Below, piece by piece: positions 2,477 through 41,198 of a DNA stretch of 64,000 nucleotides (the first letter of the stretch is position 1; the number at the start of each line of letters is the position of its first letter). Below the pieces are notes generated by a model, which saw only the letters and a program-made list of their open reading frames with translations, was not told where the DNA came from and did no database searches. A program made the translations under genes and the position numbers. This DNA comes from Clavaria fumosa (Eukaryota > Basidiomycota > Agaricomycetes > Agaricales > Clavariaceae): contig OX637796.1 in NCBI GenBank assembly GCA_951802425.1, forward strand, positions 4,154,001 to 4,218,000. The letters run 5' to 3'.

Positions 2477-5400
2477 TCACCCGTCGTCGCAACCTTCGAT
2501 CCGCTGGCCTCCGTCGTTGCCGGCCCTTCGTCTTATCGCACCATCCTTATCGGATTTTATCGGACACATAGCAGAATATCCCGGACACCGTATATTTCTA
2601 TTTCTCACACATTTTGAATTCATACTCCACATCCTCAAGGGTGTTTGGTGAATCTCTAACGCCTTACAGGAACCCCTGAAGGACTTGACTGTAATCAAGC
2701 AGTTGCAGCAAGAACCGTAATACCCACTACACCGGAGGAGACGCGCCGCTCCAAGTCCTGTGAGGTCGAGCCCAATCGCTTCGAGCAGTGTCCGTTTCGT
2801 GAATTTGTCGACAATAACAAGGATGGCATTATGTCCACGGGAGAGGGGGAGGGGACCGACTATGTCCCATGAAATCACCGACCAGGGACCATCGGGCACC
2901 AGATGGGGGTGCAGTGGGGCAGCACGCTTGGTACGGTCGGGCTTCGTCCGCTGGCATGTCTCACACCCCTGGGCATACCGATCCGCATCTTTTACCATGT
3001 CCGGCCACCAATAACCCTTCACTAGTGCTGCTCTCAACTTCCGGGGCCCAGGGTGTCCAGCAGCGGGGAGGTCATGCTCAAACTCGAGAACGGCCTCACG
3101 AGCTCCTAGGGGGACCCAAGTGACTATCCCCTTCCGCCAGAGTCCAGCACGATCTCGTGTCCACTCATCATCAAGCTCCTCCGGCTTCTGTATGTGTACC
3201 GCGCTATTTTTCTGGAGTAGCGTCTCCATTTCCGATGTGAATGACACACGGACTTCCGTTTCTGGGAAAACCTGCACCGGTGCATCCTCCTCCACCATCT
3301 CTCCATAGTCCGGTCTCCGGGAGAGTGCATCTGCCTTTGTATTCGACTTGCCAGTGCGATACTTTATCTCAAAGTCAAAGCACTGGAGCTCTCCAACCCA
3401 ACGAACCTGCCTCGGCTTCAACTTCTGGGGCTTCCGGAAGTACTGGAGGTTTGCATGGTCCGTCCAGATCTCAATCGTCTCCTCTGCTCCAATGAGGTAT
3501 GCTCGCCACTCGCGAAGTGCCCGAATCACAGCCAAGAACTCCTTGTCGTACACATCGTAGTTCTTCTCAGCTGCAGTGAGGGCCTTGGAGATATAGTCAA
3601 CAACTCTCCAGGTTCCATCCATCTGCTGCTGCGAGAGCACTCCACCAGTTGCCAGGTTGCTTGCATCTGTCTCTACCTTCCATCTCCCTTTGTCCTGAGG
3701 CAGAGCCAAGACTGGGGCCGATACGAGTGCCTGGCGGAGATCTCGGAAGGCTGCTTCCTCCTCCTCCTCCCATTTCCATGGAACATTCCCAGTCAGCCGG
3801 AAGAGTGGCTTTGCCCGGGCAGAAAGATTCGGGATGTGTCGGCGGAGGTAGTTCAGCATTCCATTGAACCTCTGGACATCCTTCACATTCTTGGGACATG
3901 GCCAATCTCGGACTGCCGCACCCTTGGCCGGATCATGCTCTAGTCTGTTGTGGGAGATCTTCATCCCCAGGAAGATGATCTCGCTCTTCTCAAACTCGCA
4001 TTTACTGAGTTTGAGACACAGCCCATTCTCTCCAAACTTCCTCAAGACCCGATCCATCCAGTACCGGTGTGTAGCCAAGTCCTCTGCAAACACAATGACA
4101 TCATCCACATAGGCCCTCACATGTCCTCCTGCAATCTCCTCCCTCAACACATGATTCATGAAGCGTTGGAAGGTAGCAGGGGCATTCTGCAGTCCAAACC
4201 ACATGACAGCTGGTTCGAAGAGTCCACAGGGTGTCAGGAAGGCGCAGCGGTGCTGGTGCTCGGGCCAGACCTGCATAGATGGGAAACCTCCCTTTGCATC
4301 AATCTTAGAGTAGATCGACGCTCCTTTAAGCACATCCACTGTGTCTCGGATGCGGGGGAGGGGGTACTTGTCCTTGATCAGGTGTGCATTCAGCCTCGAG
4401 TAGTCGATGATTGGCCGCAGTTTGTCCTTCTCATGTTTGAAGAAGAAGGGGCTGGCATACGGGGATTTTGAGGGCCGGATTCGTCCAGAAGCAAGCTGCT
4501 CATCCACCCAACGGTTCATCTCCACCATCTCCTGCCGTGTCAAAGAATACAGCTTGGAGGAGAGGTGCTCAGGGTCCTTTTTGAACTCGATCTTAATATC
4601 GAAGTCTGGTCGGGAGCAGGGAAGTTCATCCCACTTCGCTTCACTAAACACCAAAGGGTAGCGGCTGGGCCAATCGGGGGTAGGGCCAGAGTTGGGAAAA
4701 CGGGTGTCCAGAATACTCGTGGATGTGAGGGTACTCGTTTTCAGGGGTGCAGAGACTCGAGGGGATGGGGAACACTGTGGGGGGCAGCAGGTAAGGCTCA
4801 GCTCTGCCTTCTGCCAGTCGATATCTGGGTTATGCCGCTTGAGCCAGTCATGCCCAAGGATGACCTTGTGGGACTGGGTCTTTCCCAGCAGAAAGTGGAT
4901 CCGCTCCTGGTGGTCACCAACTCTCACCAGCACCTCTATCCCATACCGGACCTTTCCATTCCTGTTCTGTGTCCCATCCACATTATACATGGTGATTGGG
5001 TTCAGCAGGAGAGATGGCTCCAGTCCCACTCCTTTCGCCCACTCCAAATCCATGAAGCAGTTGGTGCACCCTGAGTCAACAAGGGCCTTCATTGTGGTCC
5101 CTTTGCCAGTGCTGAAAGCCTCCAAGTGCACCTGGATGGCTAGCTCTCGTGGCACATGTTTCCGCACTTCTGGCCGCACTCTGGTTAGGCGCTCTGCCAG
5201 TCTCACTTCCTCCTTCACCTCAGCCCCAATTCGGGTATGTCTCCGCTGCAAGATAGTATATCGGGGTATACTTGCAGCAGGCACAGGGATGGAAAGGGGG
5301 CTGGCACACTTCTTCTCCCCAGTGGGAGTCCTCCTCTCTCTCTCACACAGCTCTATGCAGGCTCGGAGCCATGCAATCTCTTTCTCATATCCCTCTGCCA

Positions 5401-6247
5401 TTTGGGGGGCACATGGTGCTGCCCGGGTTTGGGCCCTTGGGACCTGCAGACGCGTATCAGGCAGGGGGCAGAAACGGACAGCATGGCCAGTCTGGTGGCA
5501 TCGGAAACAACATCTCTCATCAGCAGGGGCCCATCCTTGGGCCATGGCCACATCTGGAGTACACAGCAGAGGGGTCACAAGAGGTTGCAAAACGGTCACG
5601 GCAGGTCGTGGTAGGGTCGCGGTGGGTCGCGCAAGGGTCACAGTGGGTCGCGGTGTCCGTTCCGTGAGTATCCCATCCAGTCGCCTTTGCTGGGCATCAA
5701 GCCTCTCAGCCAGCACCTTCCATTCTCCATATGTCTCTGGCATCGGGGAGACACCATAGATTCTCTCCACCAACCTCCTACTCAGGTTCAACTCCAGCCA
5801 ATGGACTAGGATTCCTGAGTCCTTCTCTGCACTCAACTTCGCCCGTCGGAACAGCGTCTCGAATTTTGCGAAGAACTCTGGTGCTGTCATGGCACCCTGT
5901 TTCAGCCCTGCAATATCGGCAAGGGCAGTCGCACGGTCATTCGGGTCATCGAATGCGCACTTCATCTCCTCCACAAACTCTGCCCAGGTTCCGGCCTCGC
6001 CACTACCCAGGATCTCTTCCGCCTTCATATTCGCCCACTCTGCAGCGAATCCTTCTCCAGTAATTTTGCTCAGAGCAAGAAGGACCTTCACCAGGTCCAC
6101 AGCATAGACAGTCGGGTTCGCCATAAACAGGAGGCGAAGGGATCGGAGGAACGTACGGAAGTTCCTTTTCTGCCCATCAAAGGGGGCAACAGATAGGTCA
6201 AGCCTCATAGGTTGGGCTACAGGCGGGGCGACATGGTCTGCCATCAC
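2477..6247 (-). pseudogene. Ty3/gypsy Gag-Pol polyprotein, integrase truncated
   Basis: A single 1256-residue frame. Gag occupies about residues 15-200. A CCHC zinc knuckle (CFRCHQTGHAVRFC) lies near 247-260, and the aspartic protease active site is VDSGCTNCF near 390. Reverse transcriptase runs about 540-740 with YVDD near 712, RNase H starts near 860 (ETDASN), and the integrase HHCC zinc domain is near 1060-1105. The first integrase catalytic Asp (SWDIVG) is near 1128. Homology stops after about residue 1167 (near base 2745). The last 90 residues are unrelated, so the second catalytic Asp, the Glu and the C-terminal domain are missing. The long open frame up to that point suggests a fairly young element broken by a 3' deletion or rearrangement. 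The start is the ATG-ATG pair at 6247. A second, older copy of the same family lies at 10870-12298. Confidence 0.9.
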
Positions 6248-25786: not shown

Positions 25787-25977
25787 AAAAGAGACTACTC
25801 TATGTACTTGTCATATACTGCACAATATCATGAATTGTTCATTTTAATCCTAATCTATAGCATGCTGAAACACTCATGAGTTTATTGCTTCAACCTTGCA
25901 CTGGAATTCACCTCACCTCCACTCAGCTCCTGATTATATCATAATCATGACAACATAATTCAATGTAGTACAAAGGC

Positions 25978-26129
25978 TTACTATCCTACCCAACAGCACT
26001 ATCACTAGTTGCTACTAGGCTCAACATAGTACATAGGCTCTACTACTATTACTAGTATGCACTCATAATATGCTACTAGGCTCAACATAGTACATAGGCT
26101 CTACTACTATTACTACTATGCACTCATAA
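25978..26129. repeat. 61-bp satellite, left part of the array
   Basis: Two copies of a 61-bp unit containing CTACTAGGCTCAACATAG and TACATAGGCTCTACTAC. They are continuous in phase with the array at 35012-35332 if the intervening retroelement is removed. The unit contains CATAA, the target duplicated on insertion. Confidence 0.9.
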
Positions 26130-26356
26130 TGTAAGGCTATAGGCCTTTTCTATTCTTTTATTACATAATATACATACTATAATAGTCTACTAGCATAGCC
26201 GCTTAGGCCATGCTTACATCAGCGGCCCCTAGAGGGCCGCTCGCCTATATATATATCATGTCGCGACTGTACAGAGAGGGTAGATCCCTCTACATAGAAC
26301 TACCATACTCAATATACAGTTGAGTCCGGTTCTTTTGAGGGATAGAAAGTATTACA
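26130..26356 (+). repeat. 5' LTR of the gypsy/chromodomain element
   Basis: 227 bp, TGTAAGGC to ATTACA. The four differences from the 3' LTR all lie in CG/TG/CA dinucleotide contexts. It contains a palindromic GCGGCCCCTAGAGGGCCGC and the TATA tract listed separately. The gag ATG lies only 41 bp after its end. Confidence 0.95.
26245..26256 (+). promoter_or_regulatory. TATA box of the 5' LTR
   Basis: The run CTATATATATAT in the middle of the LTR, about 100 bp before its 3' end, fits the U3/R boundary of an LTR promoter. The same tract is kept in the 3' LTR near 34900 and, shortened, in the third LTR copy near 39793. Confidence 0.7.
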
Positions 26357-26397
26357 ACTTTTTTGAACCTTCAACACAACGAGTGTGGCTAGAAATG

Positions 26398-28119
26398 GGT
26401 TACACCCGTATAGCCGCGCAGAAGAAGCACAACAGGAAGGGAGGAGAAACTCCTCCCTTGGTAGGACCTCTGCGCGACACAGGCGTCGCGCAGCCAGAGG
26501 GAATAGGACCCTCTGTCGAGCCCAGTGGTGAACCCCTGCTAAGGGCTGACGTGGTGTCACCGGCCCCTGACGACGGTGTTAGGTCTGAAACGCTGTCGAC
26601 ACGTGGCAATCGCCACGAGGAGGGCGCCACAACGCGCCAAGTCACTGGCGAAGCGCCATCGCTCGAGAAGGCCGGACCTTCAAAAGGAAAGGGCAGAGAG
26701 CCCTTAGAAACCCGCGAGAGGTGGCCGCGAGAGCGGTCAAGCTCGCAGGCTCCCTCCAATAGTGGAGATGAGCCCACAGCGATAGCGCGAGCTAACGCTG
26801 TAGCCGAGAGACTCTCGGACATTCAGGCGGAACTTTCCCACCAGGATGAAGAGTTTGAGGCTCTTGTAAGGGCGATGAAAAATCGCCAAGCCACTATTTG
26901 GCAATGGCTAAGCGAGGAGGCTACCCACGTTAGGCGGGTGCTGGACTCGCTAGATGAGCAGGGAACCACGCTAGCGGCTCCCTTACGGCGGCAATGCCGT
27001 GATTCGGTGGAACCCGAAGCGGGGCCTGCCCTGCCGAGTCAGGCGCCAGCTGACCACAAGGAAGGGTGGCGAAGGGAGAACCGCGTGGACAGTTCTCGAA
27101 CCCCTGGCGAACCAGGAATGGAGGGCGGTAGCCCTCGAGAAATAGTGGGGCCGGAGCCGCGGCTTATGTCGCGCTACCCACAGCTGGGTCAGCGAGAGCC
27201 AACGGGCCAGATGGGTCTGTTCGGATGGATGGAACCGCCCCAGAAGGAGCGGGAGATTACTCGGGAGGTGTCCCCAAGTTTTACAAACTACCAGAGCGAT
27301 GTATTACATCGCTACCTCGTGATGATACGAGATAAAACCTCGCTATTGCCTGAGGCAATAGCTGAGATTAGGGGGATTAAGATTGACCCCCCTGAGCTTT
27401 ATGACGGACGAGATGACCTCGTCGTCTGGGAAAGGTGGCTCGATGGCCTCCTTAATTACTTCTACTTCTATAGAGTAGTCAGCCCGCAGTTGGAGCACCA
27501 ACGTGTTATGCTAGCGGGGTCACGTTTAAGCGGAATAGCTGCTACTTGGTATACCCAAGAAGTAACGGGTCTATCCCATGCTCCTCGAAGGTCCACCTTT
27601 GAGGAATTGATAACCGCTATGTTTAAGCGGTTCCTGACTGAGGTAACGGCGCAGAAGGCAGTGGATGCCTTCTATCAGGTGAAGTTTACAAAGGCGAAGG
27701 GCGCCTTGGGCTTCTGGAACGAATTGGCCCAGGCGGCGGAGAGAATGCTCACCCCGCCTGACGCCAGTACGATGAAAAGGCAGTTCCTTAACGGACTGCC
27801 TAACGAGATGGTGGAGGCCATCTTCAAAACTCGCGCGATTAGCGTCGAGTTATCCTCGGTTGAGGATATTATTGACGCTAGTCGCCAAGTGGAAGCGACC
27901 CTCCACTACCTCCAGCAGCGGAGGGCGGTGCCTTTGGTAGGGAACCAGGCAGGTCCCAAAGGAAACCCGCCTACAGGCAGAGTGCCTGTGGGGCAGAGGT
28001 TTGTGAGACTGTGGCTGTATCGGCCGCACACAGACCGTAGGCCAGGGGAACCTGTTCCCCTGCGGATCGACCGCGTGCGTGCAAACCGGAGGAAGCAAAC
28101 CCCGGCTAGAACCGCCTAA
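26398..28119 (+). CDS. Gag protein of the gypsy/chromodomain element
   Basis: The frame opens inside the LTR; the chosen start is MGYTRIAAQKKHNRKGG at 26398, the first ATG after the LTR. The first 270 residues are charged and low in complexity, with a helical stretch (AERLSDIQAELSHQDEEF). A retrotransposon Gag domain follows near residues 330-510: PPELYDGRDDLVVWERWL, ATWYTQEVTG, MFKRFLTEV, FLNGLPNEMV and QVEATLHYLQQRR. After this the frame becomes implausible (Arg-rich) and ends at 28119. The zinc knuckle lies in the next frame, so a +1 shift occurs between about 28003 and 28119. It may be a programmed shift or a mutation. Confidence 0.85.
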   Translation, partial: GYTRIAAQKKHNRKGGETPPLVGPLRDTGVAQPEGIGPSVEPSGEPLLRADVVSPAPDDGVRSETLSTRGNRHEEGATTRQVTGEAPSLEKAGPSKGKGREPLETRERWPRERSSSQAPSNSGDEPTAIARANAVAERLSDIQAELSHQDEEFEALVRAMKNRQATIWQWLSEEATHVRRVLDSLDEQGTTLAAPLRRQCRDSVEPEAGPALPSQAPADHKEGWRRENRVDSSRTPGEPGMEGGSPREIVGPEPRLMSRYPQLGQREPTGQMGLFGWMEPPQKEREITREVSPSFTNYQSDVLHRYLVMIRDKTSLLPEAIAEIRGIKIDPPELYDGRDDLVVWERWLDGLLNYFYFYRVVSPQLEHQRVMLAGSRLSGIAATWYTQEVTGLSHAPRRSTFEELITAMFKRFLTEVTAQKAVDAFYQVKFTKAKGALGFWNELAQAAERMLTPPDASTMKRQFLNGLPNEMVEAIFKTRAISVELSSVEDIIDASRQVEATLHYLQQRRAVPLVGNQAGPKGNPPTGRVPVGQRFVRLWLYRPHTDRRPGEPVPLRIDRVRANRRKQTPARTA

Positions 28120-29023
28120 GGCGGTGCCCAAGATTGGAGTACGAGGCGGAGAGGAGCGGAAAGCTCCTCTAACATGCTATATGTGCGGGAAAGCAGGGCA
28201 CTACGCGAATGTGTGCCCTCAGTCACAGCGAAAGCCAGAGGCTTTGAGGGGAAATGTAAGGAACTATGCCTTACAAGAGGAGCCCAAGGAACTGCTGGAA
28301 ACACCGGCGGTTGAAAGCGAGGAGCCGGAGGGTGAAGCCCTACCGGAGGAAGTCACGGAAGACGACTACGCTGGTCGCGGGGACCAGTACGATTCGGACG
28401 AGCTCGAGGAGGAGGCGGAAAGCGACCAGGTCGCTGGAATCCGGGAATTAGAAGAGGACGAAGTCCTCTACACGACAGAAGTACATGTCGGCCATGTTGA
28501 CGACAGGCCATTTCGGGTGCACGTCTGGAAGGAGTGGACGGGATCACGCCCGGTAGTAACAAAGGAGGCTAGGCAATGCCTCGCGGCCTACATCACCGTG
28601 AACGGTGTAAAAGCGTATACACTTTTCGATTCTGGAAGTACCCCGGACCTGATGAGCCCAGACTTTGCCCGGGTGACGAAGGTACCAACCTTCCAACTGG
28701 ATAATCCAGTTCCTATCCAACTCGGCTGTATCGGCAGCCGATTGATGATCACACGCGGATGCCGCGTAGCGGTGGATTTGGGAGGAATACTGGTGGAGGA
28801 CCAGTATTTTGATATAGCGAACATTGACCGCTATGATATCATAGTCAGAACGGCGTTCATGTATGACTGCCGTGTGATACTGGATGTGCACCGACGTGCA
28901 ATCCGGATTGGTGAAGGGAAGGGAAAAACCCTTCAGGCGATGTCGCCCAGTGAGGAGACGGAAGCATTACGCGTCCGTATATCGGCTAAGAATGCGCCGA
29001 GGAAGGGAGCTCGAAAGAGCTGA
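28079..29023 (+). CDS. Gag zinc knuckle and aspartic protease segment
   Basis: In the frame following gag: CCHC zinc knuckle CYMCGKAGHYANVC at about residues 33-46, a long acidic linker, then a retropepsin-like domain with the active site TLFDSGSTPDLM (DSG in place of the usual DTG) and YDIIVRTAFM before the end. The stop at 29021-29023 comes about 22 codons before the reverse transcriptase frame begins at 29088. Typical elements run through, so a frameshift near 29000-29087 has separated protease from polymerase. There is no convincing ATG; translation probably depended on fusion to Gag. Confidence 0.8.
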   Translation: MQTGGSKPRLEPPKAVPKIGVRGGEERKAPLTCYMCGKAGHYANVCPQSQRKPEALRGNVRNYALQEEPKELLETPAVESEEPEGEALPEEVTEDDYAGRGDQYDSDELEEEAESDQVAGIRELEEDEVLYTTEVHVGHVDDRPFRVHVWKEWTGSRPVVTKEARQCLAAYITVNGVKAYTLFDSGSTPDLMSPDFARVTKVPTFQLDNPVPIQLGCIGSRLMITRGCRVAVDLGGILVEDQYFDIANIDRYDIIVRTAFMYDCRVILDVHRRAIRIGEGKGKTLQAMSPSEETEALRVRISAKNAPRKGARKS

Positions 29024-29087
29024 CTACACTCGGGCCCCCGGGATGCGGGTGAGCCCTGGAAGGGGGGAGAGGCTAACGCCTCTGTAA

Positions 29088-32000
29088 AGATAGACGACGC
29101 CTACCTCGAAGGCAGGCGTGAGTACTGGTTTAACCAGTACGCTGAGCTCTTTGGGGGAGTTCCCCCCAGACCGCCGCCGTTTCGGGCGGTGAACCACCGC
29201 ATACCCTTAATAGACGAAAAGCAAGTCTATAATTATTACCTGCCTCGGTGTGCTGAGGCATTTAAGGAACAATTCCTTGAGAAAGTGAACCGTTATATTA
29301 CTAACGGTTGGTGGGAAGCAGGAGCGGCATCGCAAGCAGCTCCTATGTTATGCATACCAAAAAGCAGCCGGAACCCGCTGCTACGGACAGTTGTGGACTG
29401 TCGGAAACGGAATGCGAACACAGTACGGGATATTACCCCATTGCCTGATCAGGATCAGATCAGGCAGGACGTGGCTAGAGCCACATATAGGTCAAAGATT
29501 GACCTATCAGATGCGTAGAGCCTGAGGACGTGTGGAAGACGGCGTTCGCGACCGTCTTGGGCACCATGTTCTCACAGGTGATGCAGATAGGGGATTGTAA
29601 TGCCCCTGCTACCTTCCAGCACCTGATGACGCATATATTTCATCATCAATTGGGAAAGTACGTGCATGTGTACTTAGACGATGTATTCGTCTTCTCCAAG
29701 ACCCTGGAGGACCATGAGTGTCACTTAAAGACGGTCTTTGAGACCCTCAAATGCGCGAGCCTTTTCTTGAGCAAGAAGAAGTGCTCGTTATACACGAAGA
29801 GCGTAGATTGCTTAGGGCATATTATAGATGCCCAAGGAATCCACGTCACAGTGGATAAAATGGATAAAATCTGTAACTGGAAAACACCGACAAGCATTAA
29901 CGAGGTGCAGAGGTTCCTTGGATTAGTACAGTACATCGGACAGTTCATGCCCGATCTGTCCGCTTACACTGGCCCTTTGGCTAGTCTGTGTAGTGAAACG
30001 CGAACGTTTCACTGGAGACCACTCCATGACAAGTGCATGGAGATGATTAAGGCATTGGCGTGTAAAACGCCAATATTACGCCCGGTAGACGCAGCAGTAC
30101 AGGAGCCAATCTGGCTTGTGTGCGATGCATCAGTGTCAGGCATAGGGGCCATGTATGGCCAGGGAAAGACATGGGAAACCTGCTGTCCGGCGGGGTTTAT
30201 GTCTAAAAGGTTTAGCCCAGCCCAGTTTAGTTACAAAACCTGGGACCAGGAGGCCTTAGTGATTGTCGAATCGCTACAGAAATGGGAGGATAAACTCCTT
30301 GGTAGACAAATCAACGTGGTCACAGACCACGAAGCGCTGGGGTTCTTTAAGAACTAAACGCGCTTGTCTGGCCGGCAGGCCAGGTGGATGGAATATATGG
30401 AGAGGTTTAACTACTCCATCACTTACATTAAAGGCGAGAGCAACAAAGTTGTGGATGGCCTTTCGCGTTACCATATGAGTGACGCGATGGATGAGATTCA
30501 TCCAGATCATGAGTACGTAAAGGTGGACGTTCGCCTTGACCCGGAAGGGGACGAGTTGCCCTGCGGACGCCTGGAGGAGGTGCGCGCACTACGAGTATGC
30601 ACACCTGCCGCGGACGAGGAGACTGAGCAGGAGCAACCGCCGCCTATGCCCCAAGCGGACAGGGATGTGAGGGACGAGATGCTCGTGCCCTTAAGGCCCC
30701 GCGTGGAAGGGGGGGATAGCAGGATGCTGCAAAGCATCCGTGATGGCTATGAACAGGATCGCCTGTTCAAAATAATTTTGGAGAAACCGGGAAACTACAC
30801 CGGTTTTAAGATCAGGGATGACCTGATCTTAGCTGAGAATAAAAAAGGAGACGAGGTGCTCTGTGTGCCTCGTACCCTTCATGAAGGGAAAAGCATCCCT
30901 GGGAGAATAATCCAGGAAGCCCATGCGGTCCTAGGACACATGGGGGCGCGGATAACGATGGATTACGTCCGCCGTTACTACTGGTGGCCATCGGTGTCTA
31001 AAGACATTGATAAGTTTTGCTCGTCGTGCGGCGTGTGCCAGACGAGCAAGACTTCCCCTCAGAAGCCGCAGGGGCTTCTACACACCCTTCCGATCCCCAG
31101 GCGGCCCTGGGAATCAATAGGAATGGACTTTGTAGGTCCATTTCCTATGTCGAAAGAGGCGGACTACCTCTGGGTGGTGATCTGCCGCCTCACTTCACTG
31201 GTACACCTAGTACCAGTTACCGTTTCGGTAACGGCAGCAGAGCTAGCCTGGCTCTTCCTAACCCATGTAGTGAGACTGCATGGGTTGCCAGGATCGATTG
31301 TGTCCGATCGTGATCCGAGATTTACGTCTGCCTTTTGGCAGGAAACACACCAACTACTTGGTGTCAAGCTGCGGATGTCCACAGCTTTCCATCCGCAGAC
31401 GGATGGAGCGACGGAACGGTCGATCCGATCCGTGTCTCAGATCCTCCGATCGGTGGTCCAACTGGACCAGACAGACTGGGCGGAGCGAATCCCAATGGTC
31501 GAATTCGCCATTAACGTGTCAATAAGCGCGTCGACGGGGTTTGCCCCGTTTGAGCTCACCTATGGGTACATGCCCCAGATGATGGCAGAGTTGCCAGACG
31601 ACCTCCGGGCGGTGCCCAGAGGGGTACGGATGTTCGCGGAGAAAGCCGCGCTCAACCTTACAATGGCGCATGACGCAATTATAGAAAGTCACGTCCACCA
31701 AACGTTTTACGCTAACCAGCGTAGACGGGCAGAGCACCTGTTTAGAGAGGGAGAATTAGTCTACCTCTCAACGGAGAACTTGAATCTCCCTAAAAAACAA
31801 GCTAGAAAGCTCATGCCGAAGTTTATTGGGCCATACCCAATATGGTCATGTAGACCGGAATCGTCTACATACGAGCTGGAGCTCCCCGACTCGCTAAAGT
31901 CGAGGAGAATCCACCCGACGTTCCATGTCAGCCAGTTGCGGTGACATGAACCAAATGACGACGCGTTGTTTCCGCGTCATGAAGTGAAAGTCTTTTATGA

Positions 32001-32241
32001 CTTTGGTGTGGATCCAAAGGAGGAATGGCTAGTAGATGCCATTATTGGCCATAGGTGGGAAGGCTGCCACCTGGAATGCGAGGTTCGATGGAACCTCGGG
32101 GATACGACCTGGGAGCTGTACATGGGGGTCAAAGAGCTGGCTGCTCTAGACCATTACCTTGAACTACAAGGTGTAGACTCGTGGAGGGTGCTACCTAGGC
32201 GCCCTCGAGCAGAGCGCGGACGGAGCGCCCGCGCGGAGTAG
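29088..32241 (+). pseudogene. reverse transcriptase, RNase H, integrase and chromodomain, disabled
   Basis: The start IDDAYLEGRREYWF leads into reverse transcriptase. After SKIDLSDA a stop and frame change at 29516-29530 mark a small deletion in the palm region. The domain then continues with VYLDDVFVFSK (29671; YLDD rather than YVDD) and RNase H (LVCDASVSGIGAM near 30115). TAA at 30355-30357 stands where CAA (Gln) is expected. The integrase zinc domain is near 30921-31050; the catalytic residues are GMDFVGPF (31126), VSDRDPRF (about 31303) and TDGATERS (about 31403). TGA at 31942-31944 replaces an expected Arg codon just before a chromodomain (EEWLVDAIIGHRW to about 32170). Chromodomains target integration to heterochromatin marks in related elements. 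Three or more lesions make this copy non-autonomous. Confidence 0.9.
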
Positions 32242-32329
32242 TAAACGCGATCGAGCCAGACCGCTGGGTCGTTAGCCACAGTGACTAAGTCACGTGGTGG
32301 CTCCACCGTAAAGTACAAAACCTTAAGAG

Positions 32330-32375
32330 GGCCCGCCCTCTTTTTCTCTTTTTTCCTCATCAGCCATTTGTTACA
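32330..32375 (+). promoter_or_regulatory. splice-acceptor-like polypyrimidine tract before the extra ORF
   Basis: A run of almost pure pyrimidine (CCGCCCTCTTTTTCTC, TTTTTTCCTCAT) ends in CAG at 32362-32364, 12 bp before the ATG of the extra ORF. The tract has the form of a fungal 3' splice site. It would allow the extra ORF to be made from a spliced subgenomic RNA with a donor in the 5' leader, as env genes are. The donor was not identified. Confidence 0.45.
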
Positions 32376-34487
32376 ATGGATGATCCGATGGGGGAAACCC
32401 CATCTCCTCATGCTACCCGCGCCGCCGTCCCTGGCCTTGCGCCAGGGAACTCGCTGCCAACGAGCATCGTCGGAACGGCTGGGTTGTCCCAGCCGTCATT
32501 GTTGCAAGGGGAGGAAACTCTCCCCTGGGTCCAGGATCGCATGATCCATGCGATCACCCACGGATCCCGGTGCACTCAGTGTATTGGATTCCGTCGTCAC
32601 ATCTTCGAGTCGCTGCTGCACTCGGACGAAGTGTTTCAACAAATGCTTAAGGAAGCGCAGGAAAGGGCTAAGCGTGAGCTCGAGCCGGAGCTCGGAATGA
32701 TACAACGCAAGTTGGATGACTTGTATGAAGAGTATGAGAAGGGCAATGCCCTTTGTGCCGGGCACCGGCAAAAGCTTGAAAAAGCTTACAATAGCCTGGA
32801 TAAGGTCGAGGCCGACCTTAGAAAGGCGAAGGAGAAGGTTCTCTCCTTGACAGAAAAGTTGGCAAGCGCCAACGAGGAGCTCGCCACGGTGCGAACGGCG
32901 GCGAAAGGGAAGGGACCTGACAGGGATCCCTTGGAGCGGGACCCTAAAAGGGCCCGCACTGCTGTCTCATACGCGGACATAGCGCCGCCTATGGGGGACG
33001 TGGACGTCCCCATGAACATTGAGGAGGGGTATCCCCCTCTTCCACCTGCTGGTGTTAGCCAGCAGAACCCCGATGCCTCACTGAGGCATAAACGAACGTT
33101 TGCAGAGACGGTGCTTGCGCCTCCGACAAGGGGTTATCCCTTTAATGCCCCCCGCCTGGACAGGGCTCCGGATGGCTATCCCTGGCCATCGGGGATGTCC
33201 GTCAAGCCCGGGGCGTGGGCTGTCAAGTTGAAGACGGTTGAAGAGGTGATAGCCCTCAACCAGCAGGCGCACCATGGAGCGCCTGACGGCAGTTATGATA
33301 TGACTGCCGTAATGAAGATGCGATGGGCCGTTAAGGAGGCCCAGAAGAATGCGGCAGCGGGAAAGCTGCCTACGCCAGTTGAGGACTGGCTGTTGAGGAA
33401 CTGGAGAGTTCCTGCCGGCATCGAGAAATCGGCAGACCGGGTGGCACGCCATCTGCAGGGGCAGATGTTGCGAGAGAGCAGAGGGATGGGCGACCCATCC
33501 CTGAGGGCAGGACCCTTGGAAGTCGCAGGAGGGGGAGCACCCTCCTATCCGTCATACCAGACATTGCCGCTGACAGCGGCAAGAGTGGTTGCGCCTCCCA
33601 TTAGGGAGTTTGTAGAGACTGGGGAGCCATTGCTCCCCCAAGAGCTGTGGCTCTCCTTTGTAGGGGAGAAGGGAGAAATTCCCCCTATGAACCCGAAAGG
33701 CGACAGAGGCGCAGTGTCAGACCTGTGCTGCTGGGCCGCCGACATAAGGATGGGCAGGGCGGCCGTCCTTGGTATTGATAAGGACGGGGACTCACCCCTG
33801 TCCTTTGCACGTAAGGTGGCTATCTGGCGTACCATAATGGCGTGCACACCGTCCCGGGCCCGAATGCGGTGCCCATTCCTAGCAATGGCTGTAGCCCTCT
33901 TTGTGTCAAAGGGGGCATATGCGCAGGCCATTAAAGGGAGAGTCCTCCCTGCACGACATTCCAGGCACTGGAACACAAAGATAACGCCAACCGTCGCACA
34001 GACGATTGAGGCGTTTGTAGACGCCGGAGTCTCCGTTGGGGAAACAGAGCTCTGGGATGAGTTTGTACTCGCGTGGGCACGCGAGTATGTGCGAAAGGGG
34101 AATGCCCCCTTGGACGATGATATCCAGCTAGCACTGGGTGAATGGGAGAAGCCTCCCATACCTCCCTGGACATATGCACTGCTAGAGTGCATAGGGCGCG
34201 GGGCGCGTCCGTGCCGTCTTCGGTTAAGCGAGAAGGTGGGAGACGAACAGAGGGGCGATGCGCCCCTGGAAGACGGTGGAAGCACGTCCACCGTTAGAAA
34301 CCCCCTAGGGCTACCTATTGGGGGTTTAACAATATCCCAGACAGAGGGTGCGGGGCCTTCTCAAAAACAAAAGAAAGCGGCTAAGTCATCAGCCGCTAAG
34401 GCCGCGAAGGGGCCTGTTGTGTCGTCGCCCGACTGGAGCAACGATGAGGGCGAGCCGCCATGCGACTACGAGCAGGGCTCGGACTAA
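32376..34487 (+). CDS. intact extra ORF (703 aa) between pol and 3' LTR, unknown function
   Basis: An uninterrupted frame in the position of env genes. Residues 1-60 are low in complexity. A CTQC motif with nearby His (66-75) may be a small metal site. Residues about 85-178 form a strong coiled coil (QERAKRELEPELGM, LDKVEADLRKAKEKVLSL). DPKRARTA (189-196) is a possible nuclear signal. Residues about 230-600 look globular, with Trp-rich motifs (DGYPWPSGMSVKPGAWAV, EDWLLRNWRVPAG, ELWLSFVGEKGEIPPM). The C-terminus is basic then acidic (KQKKAAKSS .. DYEQGSD). No signal peptide or membrane segment is seen, so it is not a classical envelope protein. A decayed copy lies at 37579-39388, so it belongs to the element family. 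I do not recognise a known family. It is intact although pol is broken in at least three places. Confidence 0.85.
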   Translation: MDDPMGETPSPHATRAAVPGLAPGNSLPTSIVGTAGLSQPSLLQGEETLPWVQDRMIHAITHGSRCTQCIGFRRHIFESLLHSDEVFQQMLKEAQERAKRELEPELGMIQRKLDDLYEEYEKGNALCAGHRQKLEKAYNSLDKVEADLRKAKEKVLSLTEKLASANEELATVRTAAKGKGPDRDPLERDPKRARTAVSYADIAPPMGDVDVPMNIEEGYPPLPPAGVSQQNPDASLRHKRTFAETVLAPPTRGYPFNAPRLDRAPDGYPWPSGMSVKPGAWAVKLKTVEEVIALNQQAHHGAPDGSYDMTAVMKMRWAVKEAQKNAAAGKLPTPVEDWLLRNWRVPAGIEKSADRVARHLQGQMLRESRGMGDPSLRAGPLEVAGGGAPSYPSYQTLPLTAARVVAPPIREFVETGEPLLPQELWLSFVGEKGEIPPMNPKGDRGAVSDLCCWAADIRMGRAAVLGIDKDGDSPLSFARKVAIWRTIMACTPSRARMRCPFLAMAVALFVSKGAYAQAIKGRVLPARHSRHWNTKITPTVAQTIEAFVDAGVSVGETELWDEFVLAWAREYVRKGNAPLDDDIQLALGEWEKPPIPPWTYALLECIGRGARPCRLRLSEKVGDEQRGDAPLEDGGSTSTVRNPLGLPIGGLTISQTEGAGPSQKQKKAAKSSAAKAAKGPVVSSPDWSNDEGEPPCDYEQGSD

Positions 34488-34784
34488 GCGTCCAAGCCCT
34501 TTAAAAACATATGCCTACCCCGCAGGACGAGACAGCGGCACTTGGGGCACCCCCCACCGGGGCGTGCCGCTCGTGACACGCTGTCCAACTGGGGGCAGGT
34601 CACGCAGACCACCGGGTAGGACCCATCAGCACCAGGCGAAGGCCCCAGGAGGGGATCGCGCCCGGTGACATGGCGGTAACCCTGCCCAAGGGGATGCGCC
34701 CCTTGTAACGCTATTCTACTTCTGCTCGTCGTCCCGCGCCGCCCGCGCATTGCCTCTGGTTGGGGCCTCTCCGGAGGGGGAGGG
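34488..34784. other. element 3' region with polypurine tract and antisense Cys-rich frame
   Basis: The polypurine tract GGAGGGGGAGGG (34773-34784) directly precedes the 3' LTR and primes plus-strand DNA synthesis. The stretch before it is GC-rich with a stem GCGGCAC..GTGCCGC near 34532-34568. On the minus strand a frame (34750-34484) reads VCVTCPQL and GGCPKCRCL, i.e. two CxxC pairs; it is partly kept in the second copy at 39402-39647. Whether it is expressed is unknown. Confidence 0.55.
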
Positions 34785-35011
34785 TGTAAGGCTATAGGCC
34801 TTTTCTATTCTTTTATTACATAATATACATACTATAATAGTCTACTAGCATAGCCGCTTAGGCCATGCTTACATCAGCGGCCCCTAGAGGGCCACTCGCC
34901 TATATATATATCGTGTCGTGACTGTACAGAGAGGGTAGATCCCTCTACATAGAACTACCATACTCAATATACAGTTGAGTCCAGTTCTTTTGAGGGATAG
35001 AAAGTATTACA
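34785..35011 (+). repeat. 3' LTR of the gypsy/chromodomain element
   Basis: 227 bp, same ends as the 5' LTR; four differences (GCCACTC, ATCGTG, CGTGAC, CCAGTT against GCCGCTC, ATCATG, CGCGAC, CCGGTT). Followed by CATAA, the target duplication, and then by the satellite array. Confidence 0.95.
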
Positions 35012-35332
35012 CATAATATGCTACTAGGCTCAACATAGTACATAGGCTCTACTACCATTACTACTATGCACTCATAATATGCTACTAGGCTCAACATAGT
35101 ACATAGGCTCTACTACTGTAACTACAATGCACTCATAATATGCTACTAGGCTCAACATAGTACATAGGCTCTACTACCATGACTACAATGCACTCATAAT
35201 ATGCTACTAGGTTCAACATAGTACATAGGCTCTACTACCATGACTACAATGCACTCATAATATGCTACTAGGCTCAACATAGTACATAGGCTCTACTACC
35301 GTGACTACAATGCACTCATAATATGCTACCCA
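35012..35332. repeat. 61-bp satellite, right part of the array
   Basis: About five copies of the same 61-bp unit as at 25978-26129, differing mainly in the CCATTACTAC/CCATGACTAC part. The array was one block before the gypsy element inserted. Confidence 0.9.
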
Positions 35333-36312
35333 GTCTATTGCATGCTATATAGTAATCCATACCTTCTATGTATTACTATTTTTCTCACTACATATGCTAC
35401 AGCAGTCTATACAGTCTGTGTAGTCTACATAGTCTATGCTGATAGCTACTGCTGGGGGTTCTTTTTCCTGATGGTGGCCACAACCCAGTGGATTGAAGGA
35501 GCAGAGCGAAGCATACACTTCATCAAAGAGCCCAAGGGTCTAGCCTAAGTGATATAGGTAACGCGTTTTTGGCTTGTCTACGTGAGGCGATGGGCGATTG
35601 TTCCCCGAACTAAGTGCATAATCACAAGAGAGAGAGAGAGATCCAGAAGCGTTGTCTTTCCGATGTTATGCTTTTCTCCATGAGCAATTAATTGTCAAAA
35701 AGTCTATCTAAACCCACTATGGTTCATGGCGTCGATCGACGGGGGCCCTCGCTTGTTCGTTCGCCTCAGCCATCCAGGTCAGAATATTTAGTATCGCCAC
35801 GGACTGCGTAGGAAATTCCAGTGTTGGTCATCGATCGTCGTTCAATCGTGCTTGCATGTAATCGGGCACAATGCAGAGCAACCGGGTACTTAACTGGGTT
35901 ACACAGCACAAGAGAATGGCCGGGGTGGCCGATTTGCTGTGCGGAAAGAGGGGGCGAAAAGATGCGCTGAATGTGTCTCTCGCCGGGGGGTTTCATCGCT
36001 TGTGGGGAAAGTGGTTACTCTATTCGCATTCTGGGTGCATCGAGCCCGAAAGTCGGGCCCTGTACGCTTGGGTTGCTCAGGATGACCCTGCAGGGATGAT
36101 CTTCTGCTCCAAGCTCCACTACGTCGTCAACGGGAGCACGAATTGCAATTGGTGGTTGCCACTTCTGCTGTGAAGGAATCTGATTTAGATTTACGAACAT
36201 TCGTCTAGTACTGTAGTACTGTATCCCCCCCCCTTCCGCCCATGCATTGATGTTGGCATATGATGACAGTGGCACACGACAGCGGCACACAACGGCGGTG
36301 GCACACAAGTCG
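35333..36312. other. CpG-rich unique island with a possible short gene
   Basis: Unlike its surroundings this stretch keeps many CpG sites and shows no recognisable transposon. A GAGAGAGAGAGAG run lies near 35630. A plus-strand frame 35871-36173 (100 codons) starts MQSNRVLNWVTQ and ends NCNWWLPLLL; it has no family match that I know and no clear introns, so I do not call it as a gene. The last 60 bp (ACACGACAGCGGCACAC) resemble the 42-43 kb minisatellite. Confidence 0.4.
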
Positions 36313-36318
36313 TCTACC

Positions 36319-37150
36319 TATGAAGGACCAAACTGGACAAAATTCAAATCTTGGGTCATTTATGCTTCCAGACATGCATGCACACATGTGTACATGCATG
36401 GACATGCATGTCCATGTATGTCCAGACATGTCCATACATGTCCATACATGTCCATACATGTCCATACATGTCCATCTGCATACATGTGTGCCCATTCATG
36501 TACATGCATGGGCCATGAATGTGCATATGTGTCCATGTATGGGCACATGTGTCAATATTGGCCCTGTGTGTGCAAATGTATGCCAATATATGTGCAAGCA
36601 TATGCTAATTTGTGCAAGCTTATGCTAAAATATGTGCAAGCCTATGCTAATTTGTGCAAGCTTATGCTAAAATATGTGCAAGCCTATGCCAATTTGTGCA
36701 GAATTATGCTAAAATATGTGCAAGCCTATGCCAATTTGTGCAAGCTTATGCTATTATATGTGCAAGCTTATGTCAATTTGTGCAGAATTATGCTAAAATA
36801 TGTGCAAGCCTATGCCAATTTGTGCAGAATTATGCTAAAATATGTGCAAGCCTATGCCAATTTGTGCAGAATTATGCTATTATATGTGCAAGCTTATGTC
36901 AATTTGTGCAGAATTATACTATTATATGTGCAAGCTTATGCCAATTTGTGCAGAATTATGCTTATATGTGTGCAGGTCTATGTCAATTTGTGCAGACTTG
37001 TTATATCTGGGTCATGGAGGTCAGGCAGATTCAAGTCCAGTTGGGGTTTGCAAGGTTCAGGCTGCTACAGTGAGGGTAGAACCAGTCAGAGTTCTGGAGT
37101 TAGAATAGAATGAGCACTAGCCAGGTGCCTGTTGGAGTCTGAGCCAAGTG
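36319..37150 (+). repeat. left inverted arm, tandem ACATGTCCAT and TGTGCAAGC repeats
   Basis: The outer part has 10-12 bp units built on CATGTCCATA. The inner part (about 36560-37000) has 42-bp units made of two 21-bp halves with TGTGCAAGC and TGTGCAGAATTATGC. The last 150 bp are unique and end GAGTCTGAGCCAAGTG. Because 42 and 21 are multiples of three, long frames rich in Cys, Ala and Tyr stay open; I treat these as artefacts. Confidence 0.85.
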
Positions 37151-37575: not shown

Positions 37576-37578
37576 AGA

Positions 37579-39388
37579 AAGCACTAAGCATGAACTCAGG
37601 CTGGAGCTTGGGATGATGCAGTGCAAGCTGGACAACTTGCATGAGGAGTATGAGAAGGGCAATGCCCTTTGTGCTGGGCACTGGCAAAAGCTTGAAAAAG
37701 CTTATGATAGTCTGGATAAGGTCAAGGAGGACCTTAGAAGTGCACAGGAGAAGATTCTCTCCTTGACAGAGAAGTTGGCAAGCACCAATGAGGAACTCAC
37801 CACATTGCGAACCATGGCGAAAGGGAAGGGACCTGAAAGGGATCCCTTGGAGCGGGACCCTAAAAGGGCCTGCACTGCCAGCTCATATGCAGACATAGCA
37901 CCGCCTATGGGGGACGTGGACATCCCCATGAGCGTTGAGGAGGGTATCCCCCTCTTCCACCTGCTGGTATTAACCAGCAGAACCCTGATGCCTCATTGAG
38001 GCACAAATGAACATTTGCGGAGATGGTGCTTGCGCCTCCGACAAGGGGTTAGCCCAGACAGGGCTCTGGATGGCTATCCCTGGCCATCAGGGATGTCTGT
38101 CAAACCTGGCATGTGGGTTGTTGAGTTGAAGATGGTTGAGGAGGTGATAGCCCTCAACCAGCAGGCGCATCATGGAGCACCTGATGGCAGTTACAATATG
38201 ACTGCTGTGATGAAGATGTGATGGGCCATTAAGGAGGCCCAGAAGAACGCGGCAGCAGGAAAGCTGCCTATGCCAGTTGAGGACTGGCTGTTGAGGAACT
38301 GGAGAGTTCCTGCTGGTGTCAAGAAATCAGCAGACCAGGTAGCACACCATCTGCAAGGGCAGATGTTGCGAGAGAGCAGAGGGATGGGCGACCCATCCCT
38401 GAGGGCAGGACCCTCAGAAGTCGCAGGAAGGGGAGCACCCTCCTATTTGTCGTACCAGACATTGCCACTGACAATGGCAAGAGTGGTTGCACCTCCCATT
38501 AGGGAGTTTATAGAGACTGGGGAGCCATTGCTCCCCCAAGAGCTGTGGCTCTCCTTTGTAGGGGAGAAGGGGGAAATTCCCCCTATGAATCCAAAAGGCA
38601 ACAGAGGTGCAGTGTCAGACCTGCGCTGCAGGGCTGCCAATATAAGGATGGGCAAGGTGGCTGTCCTTGGCATTGATAAAGATGGGGACTCACCCCTGTC
38701 TTTTGCATGCAAGGTGGCCATCTGGTGCACCATAATGTTGTGCGCACCGTCTTGGGCCCGAATATGGCACCCATTCCTAGCTATGGCTGTAGCCCTCTTT
38801 GTGTCAAAGGGGGCATATGTGCAGGCCATCAAAGGGAGAGTCCTCCCTGTATGACATTCCAGGCTCTGGAACACAAAAATAACACCAGCCGTCATGCAGA
38901 CAATCGAGGCGTTTGTAGACTCCGGAGTCTCCATTGAGGAAACAGAGCTCTGGGACGAATTTGTACTCACGTGGGCACGTGAGTATGTGCGAAAGGGGAA
39001 TGCCCCCTTGGACGACAATATCCAGCTAGCACTGGGTGAATGGGAGAAGCCTCCCATACCTCCCTGGACATATGCACTGCTAGAGTGCATAGGGTGTGGG
39101 GTGCATCTGCGCCATCTTTGGTTGAGTGAGAAGATGGGAGACGAACAGAGGGGTGATGCACCCCTGGAAGACAGTGGAAGCATGTCCACCATTAGAAACC
39201 CCCTAGGGCTACCTATTGGGGGTTTAACAATATCCCAGACAGAGGGTGTGGGGCCCTCTCAAAAACAAAAAAAGAAAGCAGCTAAGTCATCAGCTGCTAA
39301 GGCTGTGAAGAGGCCTGTTGTGTTGTCACCCAACTGGAGTGATGATGAGGGCAAGCCACCATGCGACTACGAGCAGGGCTCAGACTAA
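37579..39388 (+). pseudogene. decayed copy of the extra ORF (703-aa protein)
   Basis: Aligns with 32690-34487 almost end to end, lacking the first 100 codons or so. Differences are mostly CG to TG or CA. Three stops are CGA to TGA changes: the codons after RHK (about 38007), after VMKM (38219-38221), and in the VLPARH region (38852-38854). A one-base loss near 37945 and a short deletion near 38050 add frameshifts. The coiled coil, EDWLLRNWRVPAG and ELWLSFVGEKGEIPP motifs remain readable. It is followed by the same 3' region and an LTR (39687-39901). No pol precedes it, so it is a 5'-truncated element copy. Confidence 0.92.
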
Positions 39389-40256: not shown

Positions 40257-41198
40257 CACTTGGCTCAGACTCCAACAGGCACCTGGCTAGTGCTCATTCT
40301 ATTCTAACTCCAGAACTCTGACTGGTTCTACCCTCACTGCAGCAGCCTGAACCTTGCAAACCCCAACTGGACTTGAATCTGCCTGACCTCCATGACCTAG
40401 ATATACATGTAACAAGTCTGCACAAATTGACATAGACCTGCACACATATAAGCATAATTCTGCACAAATTGGCATAAGCTTGCACATACAATAGCATAAT
40501 TCTGCACAAATTGGCATAAGCTTGCACATATAATAGCATAATTCTGCACAAATTGGCATAAGCTTGCACATACAATAGCATAATTCTGCACAAATTGGCA
40601 TAAGCTTGCACATACAATAGCATAATTCTGCACAAATTGGCATAAGCTTGCACATATTTCTACAAATTGGCATAGGCTTGCACATAAGCTTGCACAAATT
40701 GGCACAGGCTTGCACATATTTTAGCATAATTCTGCACAAATTGGCATAGGCTTGCACATATTTTAGCATAAGCTTGCACAAATTAGCATAGGCTTGCACA
40801 TATTTTAGCATAAGCTTGCACAAATTGGCATAAGCTTGCACAAATTGGCATAAGCTTGCACAAATTTTAGCATAATTCTGCACAAATTGGCATGGGCTTG
40901 CACATATTTTAGCATAAGCTTGCACAAATTGGCATAAGCTTGCACATATATTGGCATACATTTGCACACACAGGGCCAATATTGACACATGTGCCCATAC
41001 ATGGACACATATGCACATTCATGGCCCATGCATGTACATGAATGGGCACACATGTATGCAGATGGACATGTATGGACATGTATGGACATGTATGGACATG
41101 TCTGGACATACATGGACATGCATGTACACATGTGTGCATGCATGTCTGGAAGCATAAATGACCCAAGATTTGAATTTTGTCCAGTTTGGTCCTTCATA
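40257..41198 (-). repeat. right inverted arm of the foldback-like unit
   Basis: Reverse complement of the left arm in the same order, starting CACTTGGCTCAGACTCC and ending GGTCCTTCATA. It is about 110 bp longer because it carries more copies of the 42-bp unit. The shared non-repeat ends show that both arms descend from one sequence. Confidence 0.9.

What the first reader, a model, noticed from the sequence alone, without database searches (positions are those of the whole stretch)
32376..34487. Intact 703-aa extra ORF in the env position of a gypsy/chromodomain element
Ty3/gypsy elements usually end after integrase. Here a complete frame with a CxxC motif, a coiled coil of about 95 residues and a large Trp-rich globular region lies between the chromodomain and the polypurine tract. 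It has no signal peptide or membrane segment, so it is not an ordinary envelope gene. It is open although pol has at least three disabling changes, and a second copy at 37579-39388 proves it belongs to the family. It could be a capsid-assisting, nuclear-import or host-counteracting protein; the role is unknown.
Basis: partly seen in the sequence, partly recalled or inferred. Interest (0 to 1): 0.85.

Follow-up and report, generated by a model that had tools for sequence, protein, structure and literature searches.

The report
Third gene in a fungal retrotransposon
A family of jumping genes in a fungus carries, besides the usual two genes, a third gene for an unknown protein that natural selection keeps intact; extra genes of this sort are known from other jumping genes, but this protein family is uncharacterised.

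Summary
32376-34487 is an open 703-codon frame between the chromodomain and the polypurine tract of an 8.9-kb Ty3/gypsy element (227-bp LTRs with 4 mismatches, CATAA duplication). It is a family trait: at least 103 places in the host genome match it, and in 30 of 30 fetched copies the element's integrase/chromodomain end lies just upstream. Between copies it evolves like a gene: dN/dS is 0.28 (bootstrap 0.24-0.33) in deep pairs, similar to the integrase end of the same copies, against 0.51-0.66 in neutral simulations and 0.59 in young pairs. So it is a third gene of the element. It has no membrane span by hydropathy, no convincing Pfam, PHROGs or PDB match, and one relative (58%, metagenome) found in 5.8 billion proteins. 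The 80 nt before its ATG vary less than its fourfold sites, which suggests a message of its own; the one obvious splice acceptor is absent in 11 of 30 copies. I favour a self-associating accessory or regulatory protein; no function could be tested. Extra ORFs in this position are known in plant and fungal gypsy elements, so this is a new member of a known kind. In passing: another gypsy family in this genome carries an unrelated antisense extra ORF.

The parts
26125..26129 (+). target site duplication CATAA, left
26130..26356 (+). 5' LTR, 227 bp, TG...CA
   Evidence: 4 mismatches to the 3' LTR
26395..28891 (+). gag with CCHC knuckle and aspartic protease; one frame break near 28080 in this copy
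   Evidence: Pfam weak Retrotrans_gag, zf-CCHC and RVP_2; frames compared with copy L041
29024..32241 (+). pol: RT, RNase H, integrase, chromodomain; broken in this copy by a frame break near 29515 and two in-frame stops
   Evidence: Pfam; Ty3 RT in PDB E 3e-106 for copy L044
32020..32175 (+). chromodomain at the pol C terminus (approximate ends)
   Evidence: same stretch of copy L041 matches the cpSRP43 chromodomain, E 3.6e-5; no Pfam chromodomain hit
32296..32375 (+). conserved 80-nt leader before the extra ORF
   Evidence: p-distance 0.036 against 0.097 at fourfold sites of the ORF, 24 copies
32325..32342 (+). hairpin at the start of a CT-rich tract that runs to about 32358
   Evidence: fold; kept in most of 30 copies and in 3 more distant ones with changes
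32376..34487 (+). extra ORF (third gene), 703 aa
32547..32600 (+). His58, Cys66, Cys69, His75: possible metal site
   Evidence: invariant in 30 of 30 copies and in 3 of 3 more distant ones; metal binding is inference
32625..32903 (+). coiled coil, residues 84-176
   Evidence: weak coiled-coil hits
33216..34295 (+). region of residues 281-640 shared with metagenomic relative P0002
   Evidence: 60% identity over 97% of the region
34299..34487 (+). C-terminal tail: NPLGLPIGGL motif, Lys-rich tract, acidic end
   Evidence: also in P0002; variation among copies
34773..34784 (+). polypurine tract
   Evidence: sequence directly before the 3' LTR
34785..35011 (+). 3' LTR
35012..35016 (+). target site duplication CATAA, right
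37577..39385 (+). second, 5'-truncated and decayed copy of the extra ORF
   Evidence: 80% identity, residues 95-703, 3 TGA; 78%

Best explanation
The ORF is the third gene of a Ty3/gypsy chromovirus family. Shown: it lies in the sense direction between chromodomain and polypurine tract in the family's copies, and selection kept its protein sequence while the element replicated, about as strictly as the integrase end. Inferred: it is made as a separate protein, most likely from its own message started at the conserved CT-rich leader before its ATG; the protein self-associates through its coiled coil and acts inside the cell as an accessory or regulatory factor on the element's RNA or pre-integration complex, not as an envelope. 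My estimates: 0.95 that it is a selected gene of the element, about 0.5 for a message of its own, about 0.4 for the regulatory role. The confidence below is for the statement as a whole.
For: 30 of 30 loci with the family's integrase/chromodomain end upstream; 74 of 103 places with a family RT within 9 kb upstream. dN/dS 0.278 in 134 deep pairs, bootstrap 0.236-0.327, against 0.51-0.66 in neutral simulations; integrase end of the same 18 copies alike. Invariant His58/Cys66/Cys69/His75. No hydrophobic span. Conserved 80-nt leader; splice-acceptor AG absent in 11 of 30 copies.
Against: No function, transcript or fold was tested or found. The 30 loci are the best 30 of 63, so the share of open frames is biased upward. 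Deep pairs share branches and are not independent. Single neutral simulated pairs ranged from 0.38 to 0.89. Copies with a frameshifted ORF sit at separate sites (4 of 4 checked), so an intact ORF in the inserted copy may not be needed, unless the deletion came after insertion or the protein acts in trans. Splicing to another acceptor was not excluded. The leader hairpin could serve the genomic RNA instead.
Confidence: 0.45

Rival explanations
1. A second structural protein: the coiled coil and the 281-640 region help Gag assemble or package RNA in the particle.
For: Large protein with a coiled coil, kept like pol.
Against: No sequence likeness to the element's gag (BLASTP E 0.027, coiled coil only) and no capsid family match. 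Sequence alone cannot separate this from the favoured role.
Confidence: 0.3
2. A factor against host silencing (chromatin or RNA silencing).
For: Separate, non-enzymatic accessory protein with a possible metal site and charged tails; precedents are recalled, not tested.
Against: No match to any such protein; residues other than the metal set change at ordinary rates, and faster host-driven evolution was not seen overall (residues 521-620 are the loosest at 0.49).
Confidence: 0.2
3. An envelope-like gene for passing between cells.
For: Position after pol on the sense strand.
Against: No hydrophobic span or N-terminal hydrophobic segment; the obvious splice acceptor is not kept.
Confidence: 0.02
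4. A passenger: a captured or chance frame without function, carried along by the element.
For: No known homologue family; several copies are frameshifted.
Against: dN/dS well below simulated neutrality in deep pairs and conserved leader.
Confidence: 0.03

Closest known systems
Sense additional ORFs between pol and 3' LTR of plant LTR retrotransposons (aORF-3S; review PMC7264820, abstract and passages seen)
   Same: Position, orientation, presence in most copies, conservation like other element genes.
   Different: Many of those are called env-like and some have transmembrane domains; none was seen here. No sequence comparison with them was possible.
'add. ORF with unknown function' in full-length fungal gypsy elements (Novikova et al. 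2010, PMC2864245; passages and section 5 seen)
   Same: Fungal gypsy elements, chromoviruses included, with an extra ORF of unknown function.
   Different: The text seen does not say which elements carry it or give sequences, so homology to this ORF is open.
brtn, antisense gene of Boty elements in Botrytis (cited in PMC7264820 and PMC8365987, passages seen)
   Same: Extra gene of unknown role in a fungal gypsy element.
   Different: Antisense; here the ORF is in sense. Sequence not compared.
CERV of the C. elegans element Cer1 (PMC10309623, abstract seen)
   Same: Possible likeness of working only: a non-enzymatic accessory protein of an LTR element.
   Different: CERV comes from a spliced mRNA and has a shown role in RNA export; neither is shown here, and homology was not tested.

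Membership tests
Ty3/gypsy chromovirus (the element) | paired LTRs with target duplication | tested here: met
   227-bp LTRs, 4 mismatches, CATAA on both sides
Ty3/gypsy chromovirus (the element) | order protease, RT, RNase H, integrase | tested here: met
   Pfam and PDB matches, order
Ty3/gypsy chromovirus (the element) | chromodomain after the integrase | tested here: met
   copy L041 matches the cpSRP43 chromodomain at E 3.6e-5; against it, no Pfam chromodomain hit up to E 10
[quoted passage not shown]
   30 of 30 fetched ORF loci; 73 of 114 RT hits with a listed ORF downstream, and of 3 of the other 41 read, 2 have a broken ORF and 1 is truncated
Sense additional ORF between pol and 3' LTR (aORF-3S) | conserved like the element's other proteins | tested here: met
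   dN/dS bins close to those of the integrase end
Retroviral or env-like gene | signal peptide or transmembrane segment | tested here: not met
   highest 19-residue hydropathy 1.52, N terminus not hydrophobic; hydropathy only
Retroviral or env-like gene | spliced subgenomic message | tested here: inconclusive
   the obvious acceptor AG is AA in 11 of 30 copies; no RNA data
CERV-like RNA export factor | nuclear protein needed for export of genomic RNA | not testable with these tools
   needs experiments
dUTPase, the other known extra domain of basidiomycete gypsy elements (PMC2864245) | dUTPase domain | tested here: not met
   no such Pfam hit for P0001 up to E 1 or P0002 up to E 10
Host gene picked up by similarity | homologues at loci without the element | tested here: inconclusive
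   none among 30 fetched loci; 29 of 103 places lack a listed RT within 9 kb, 3 of these 29 were read and have the integrase or chromodomain end; other species could not be searched

The most novel reading that the evidence does not exclude
A fungal chromovirus lineage has a dedicated regulatory gene of its own, expressed from an internal promoter, that controls the fate of its RNA or its silencing: a fungal parallel to retroviral accessory genes, with a protein family unrelated to any described one.
Probability: 0.3. Interest if true: 0.7.

Novelty: new member of a known kind. Interest (0 to 1): 0.45.

Why it matters
LTR retrotransposons are usually described as needing only gag and pol. Here a third protein of about 76 kDa has been kept by selection through many rounds of copying. 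Finding its role would show what else an element needs inside a fungal cell. The many copies, the invariant His/Cys set and the conserved leader make the question testable.

Tried and rejected
Fold: two AlphaFold2 jobs with only two sequences each gave mean pLDDT 41.5 and 42.1; no structure search was run on them because it would mean nothing.

Homology: three searches of 5.8 billion proteins (single sequence, alignment, residues 281-640) gave the same one relative, and each scored only about 8,000 candidates. A viral-contig scan gave none. The Pfam hits lie in the coiled coil and below cut-off; the PHROGs and PDB hits are weak. Descent from gag or from the antisense ORF P0003 was not supported by pairwise BLASTP. 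NCBIfam and PADLOC were not searched.

Splicing into the ORF at the CAG before its ATG: weakened, the AG is AA in 11 of 30 copies, 3 of them without a stop in the ORF. Leader RNA structure: z -2.0, 9 of 200 shuffles fold as well; covariation was not counted because the stem columns hardly vary. Self-priming match between LTR and the sequence after it: none of 8 bases or more.

Spreading of copies without an intact ORF: four copies with 385-codon open frames share one small frameshifting deletion and have different 3' flanks, but fall at three places on a tree of the ORF's 3' part; the deletion lies between short direct repeats, so it may have arisen repeatedly.

The first dN/dS run left minus-strand loci unturned and is replaced. 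The count of antisense ORFs used a partial list and is replaced. Naming the element's clade or the host species was not possible; a fungal protein kinase domain in the window only supports a fungus.

Full report
What was checked. The frame 32376-34487 is real and complete. It belongs to an element from 26130 to 35011 with 227-bp LTRs that differ at 4 sites and CATAA on both sides, inserted in 61-bp repeats. The order is gag with CCHC and protease, then RT, RNase H, integrase and chromodomain, then the extra ORF, a 285-nt tail and a purine tract. The chromodomain of copy L041 matches that of cpSRP43 (E 3.6e-5), though Pfam's models give no chromodomain hit. This copy's gag/pol has two frame breaks and two in-frame stops. 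LTR divergence of 4 in 227 means a recent insertion; no rate is at hand to turn it into years.

Is it a gene of the element? The host assembly (48.8 Mb, 17 contigs) has 63 scored matches to the protein. A search with the metagenomic relative P0002 gives 96, of which 40 are new, so 103 places in all, a lower bound. Thirty loci were fetched, the best 30 of 63; all 30 have this family's integrase or chromodomain end just upstream (in L038 only the chromodomain end). Of the 103 places, 74 have a family RT hit within 9 kb upstream on the same strand. Of the 29 without, three (L011, L025, L038) are among the 30 loci. In the other direction 73 of 114 RT hits have a listed ORF downstream; of the 41 without, three were read: two carry a frame-broken ORF and one runs into a simple repeat.

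Selection. Nei-Gojobori dN/dS falls with divergence from 0.59 (dS under 0.05) to 0.28 (dS 0.2-0.4) over 435 pairs of 30 copies. The 134 deep pairs give 0.278, codon bootstrap 0.236-0.327. At fourfold sites 88% of differences are transitions; neutral simulations with that share and four settings of C/G and CpG bias give mean ratios of 0.51-0.66, single pairs 0.38-0.89 (the simulated dS was 0.14-0.15, below that of the deep pairs). Young pairs are thus near neutral, as expected after insertion, and deep ones constrained. The integrase/chromodomain end of the same 18 copies behaves alike (0.51 falling to 0.21). Other frames give 0.92, 1.06, 0.88 and 1.22; the reverse frame that shares wobble positions gives 0.36, which is expected and is no sign of an antisense gene. 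Sixteen of 30 loci have no stop in the matched span and 14 are complete from ATG to stop; neutral simulated copies had 3-4 stops and at most 1 of 30 was stop-free. As the 30 loci were picked by score, only the dN/dS contrast is a fair test.

Anatomy of the protein. H58, C66, C69 and H75 are invariant in 30 of 30 copies and in 3 of 3 more distant ones; residues 56-85 have the lowest dN/dS of nine segments (0.17). Residues 84-176 form a coiled coil. Residues 281-640 are 60% identical to P0002, a 439-aa 'hypothetical protein' on a 2.2-kb metagenome contig. The tail has NPLGLPIGGL, a Lys-rich tract and an acidic end, with counterparts in P0002. No Pfam, PHROGs or PDB family matches convincingly and the models are too poor to search.

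How it may be expressed. The 80 nt before the ATG differ by 0.036 per site among 24 copies (276 pairs), against 0.097 at fourfold sites and 0.043 at codon positions 1+2 (six of the 30 loci were left out because the ORF's end, from which the tail was measured, differs). The block holds a hairpin running into a CT-rich tract, largely kept in three more distant copies. A CT tract followed by CAG looks like a 3' splice site, but the AG is AA in 11 of 30 copies and in two of the three more distant ones. CT tracts before transcription starts are common in fungal promoters (recalled, not tested). I favour a message of its own; this is inference.

What it most likely does. A selected protein without membrane parts, with a self-association helix, a possible metal site and charged tails, is best read as an accessory or regulatory factor acting on the element's RNA or complex. 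A particle component is the main rival, an anti-silencing factor the next. None was tested. Four copies with the same frameshifting deletion stand at four different sites: if the deletion came before insertion, an intact ORF was not needed in those copies and the protein could act in trans; if it recurred after insertion, nothing follows.

What is known. Extra ORFs between pol and 3' LTR, sense or antisense, are described for plants, with the antisense fungal example Boty brtn (PMC7264820, abstract and passages; PMC8365987, passages). Plant Retand elements have antisense ones in all cases studied (PMC11963269, abstract). Novikova et al. [quoted passage not shown] Cer1 CERV shows what such a gene can do (PMC10309623, abstract). 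Seven answered paper searches listed no paper that I recognised as describing this protein; these search words, not sequences, and most subscription papers are not held.

A second case in passing. Eight RT loci of other gypsy families in this genome are only 28-31% identical to this RT. Two copies of one such family have an unrelated antisense ORF after pol: P0003 (360 aa) and P0004 (345 aa), with a coiled coil (by eye) and a Cys pattern near the fungal Zn2Cys6 cluster (Pfam E 0.03 and 0.06, below cut-off). The genome has 124 matches to P0003. Of the first 60 of 150 RT hits, 33 have one on the opposite strand within 6 kb downstream and 2 on the same strand. The pair P0003/P0004 gives dN 0.031 and dS 0.114. 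So two unrelated gypsy lineages of this fungus each carry an extra gene in the same place.

Noticed in passing
L050:1342-2421 (-), L052:1222-2256 (-); 124 matches in the genome: Another gypsy family has an antisense ORF (345-360 aa, coiled coil, Zn2Cys6-like Cys pattern) after pol; 33 of the first 60 RT hits have one on the opposite strand within 6 kb downstream.
   Followed up: partly
L043, L056, L057, L058 (middle of the extra ORF): Four copies at different sites share the same small frameshifting deletion between short direct repeats but do not group on a tree; recurrent slippage or recombination between copies.
   Followed up: partly
e.g. G000 C9:15066-17024, C4:38696-40792, C5:3702924-3704882, C6:3633972-3635930: 67-72% relatives of the extra ORF, with 5-8 TGA and one TAG, recur, often near contig ends; they may be spread by end duplications rather than by transposition.
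   Followed up: no
L043, about 4125-5515: An insertion of about 1.4 kb beginning TG and ending CA, with what looks like a 5-bp duplication, interrupts the extra ORF of this copy (by eye).
   Followed up: no
window 36319-37150 and 40257-41198: Large inverted repeat with 42-bp tandem units on both sides of the second, truncated copy.
   Followed up: no
window 2477-6247 (-): A 1256-aa open frame of another gypsy element (gag, protease, RT, RNase H, integrase zinc domain); its RT is 29-30% identical to this family's.
   Followed up: no
window 25939-26198 and 34948-35390: The element is inserted in an array of 61-bp tandem repeats.
   Followed up: no
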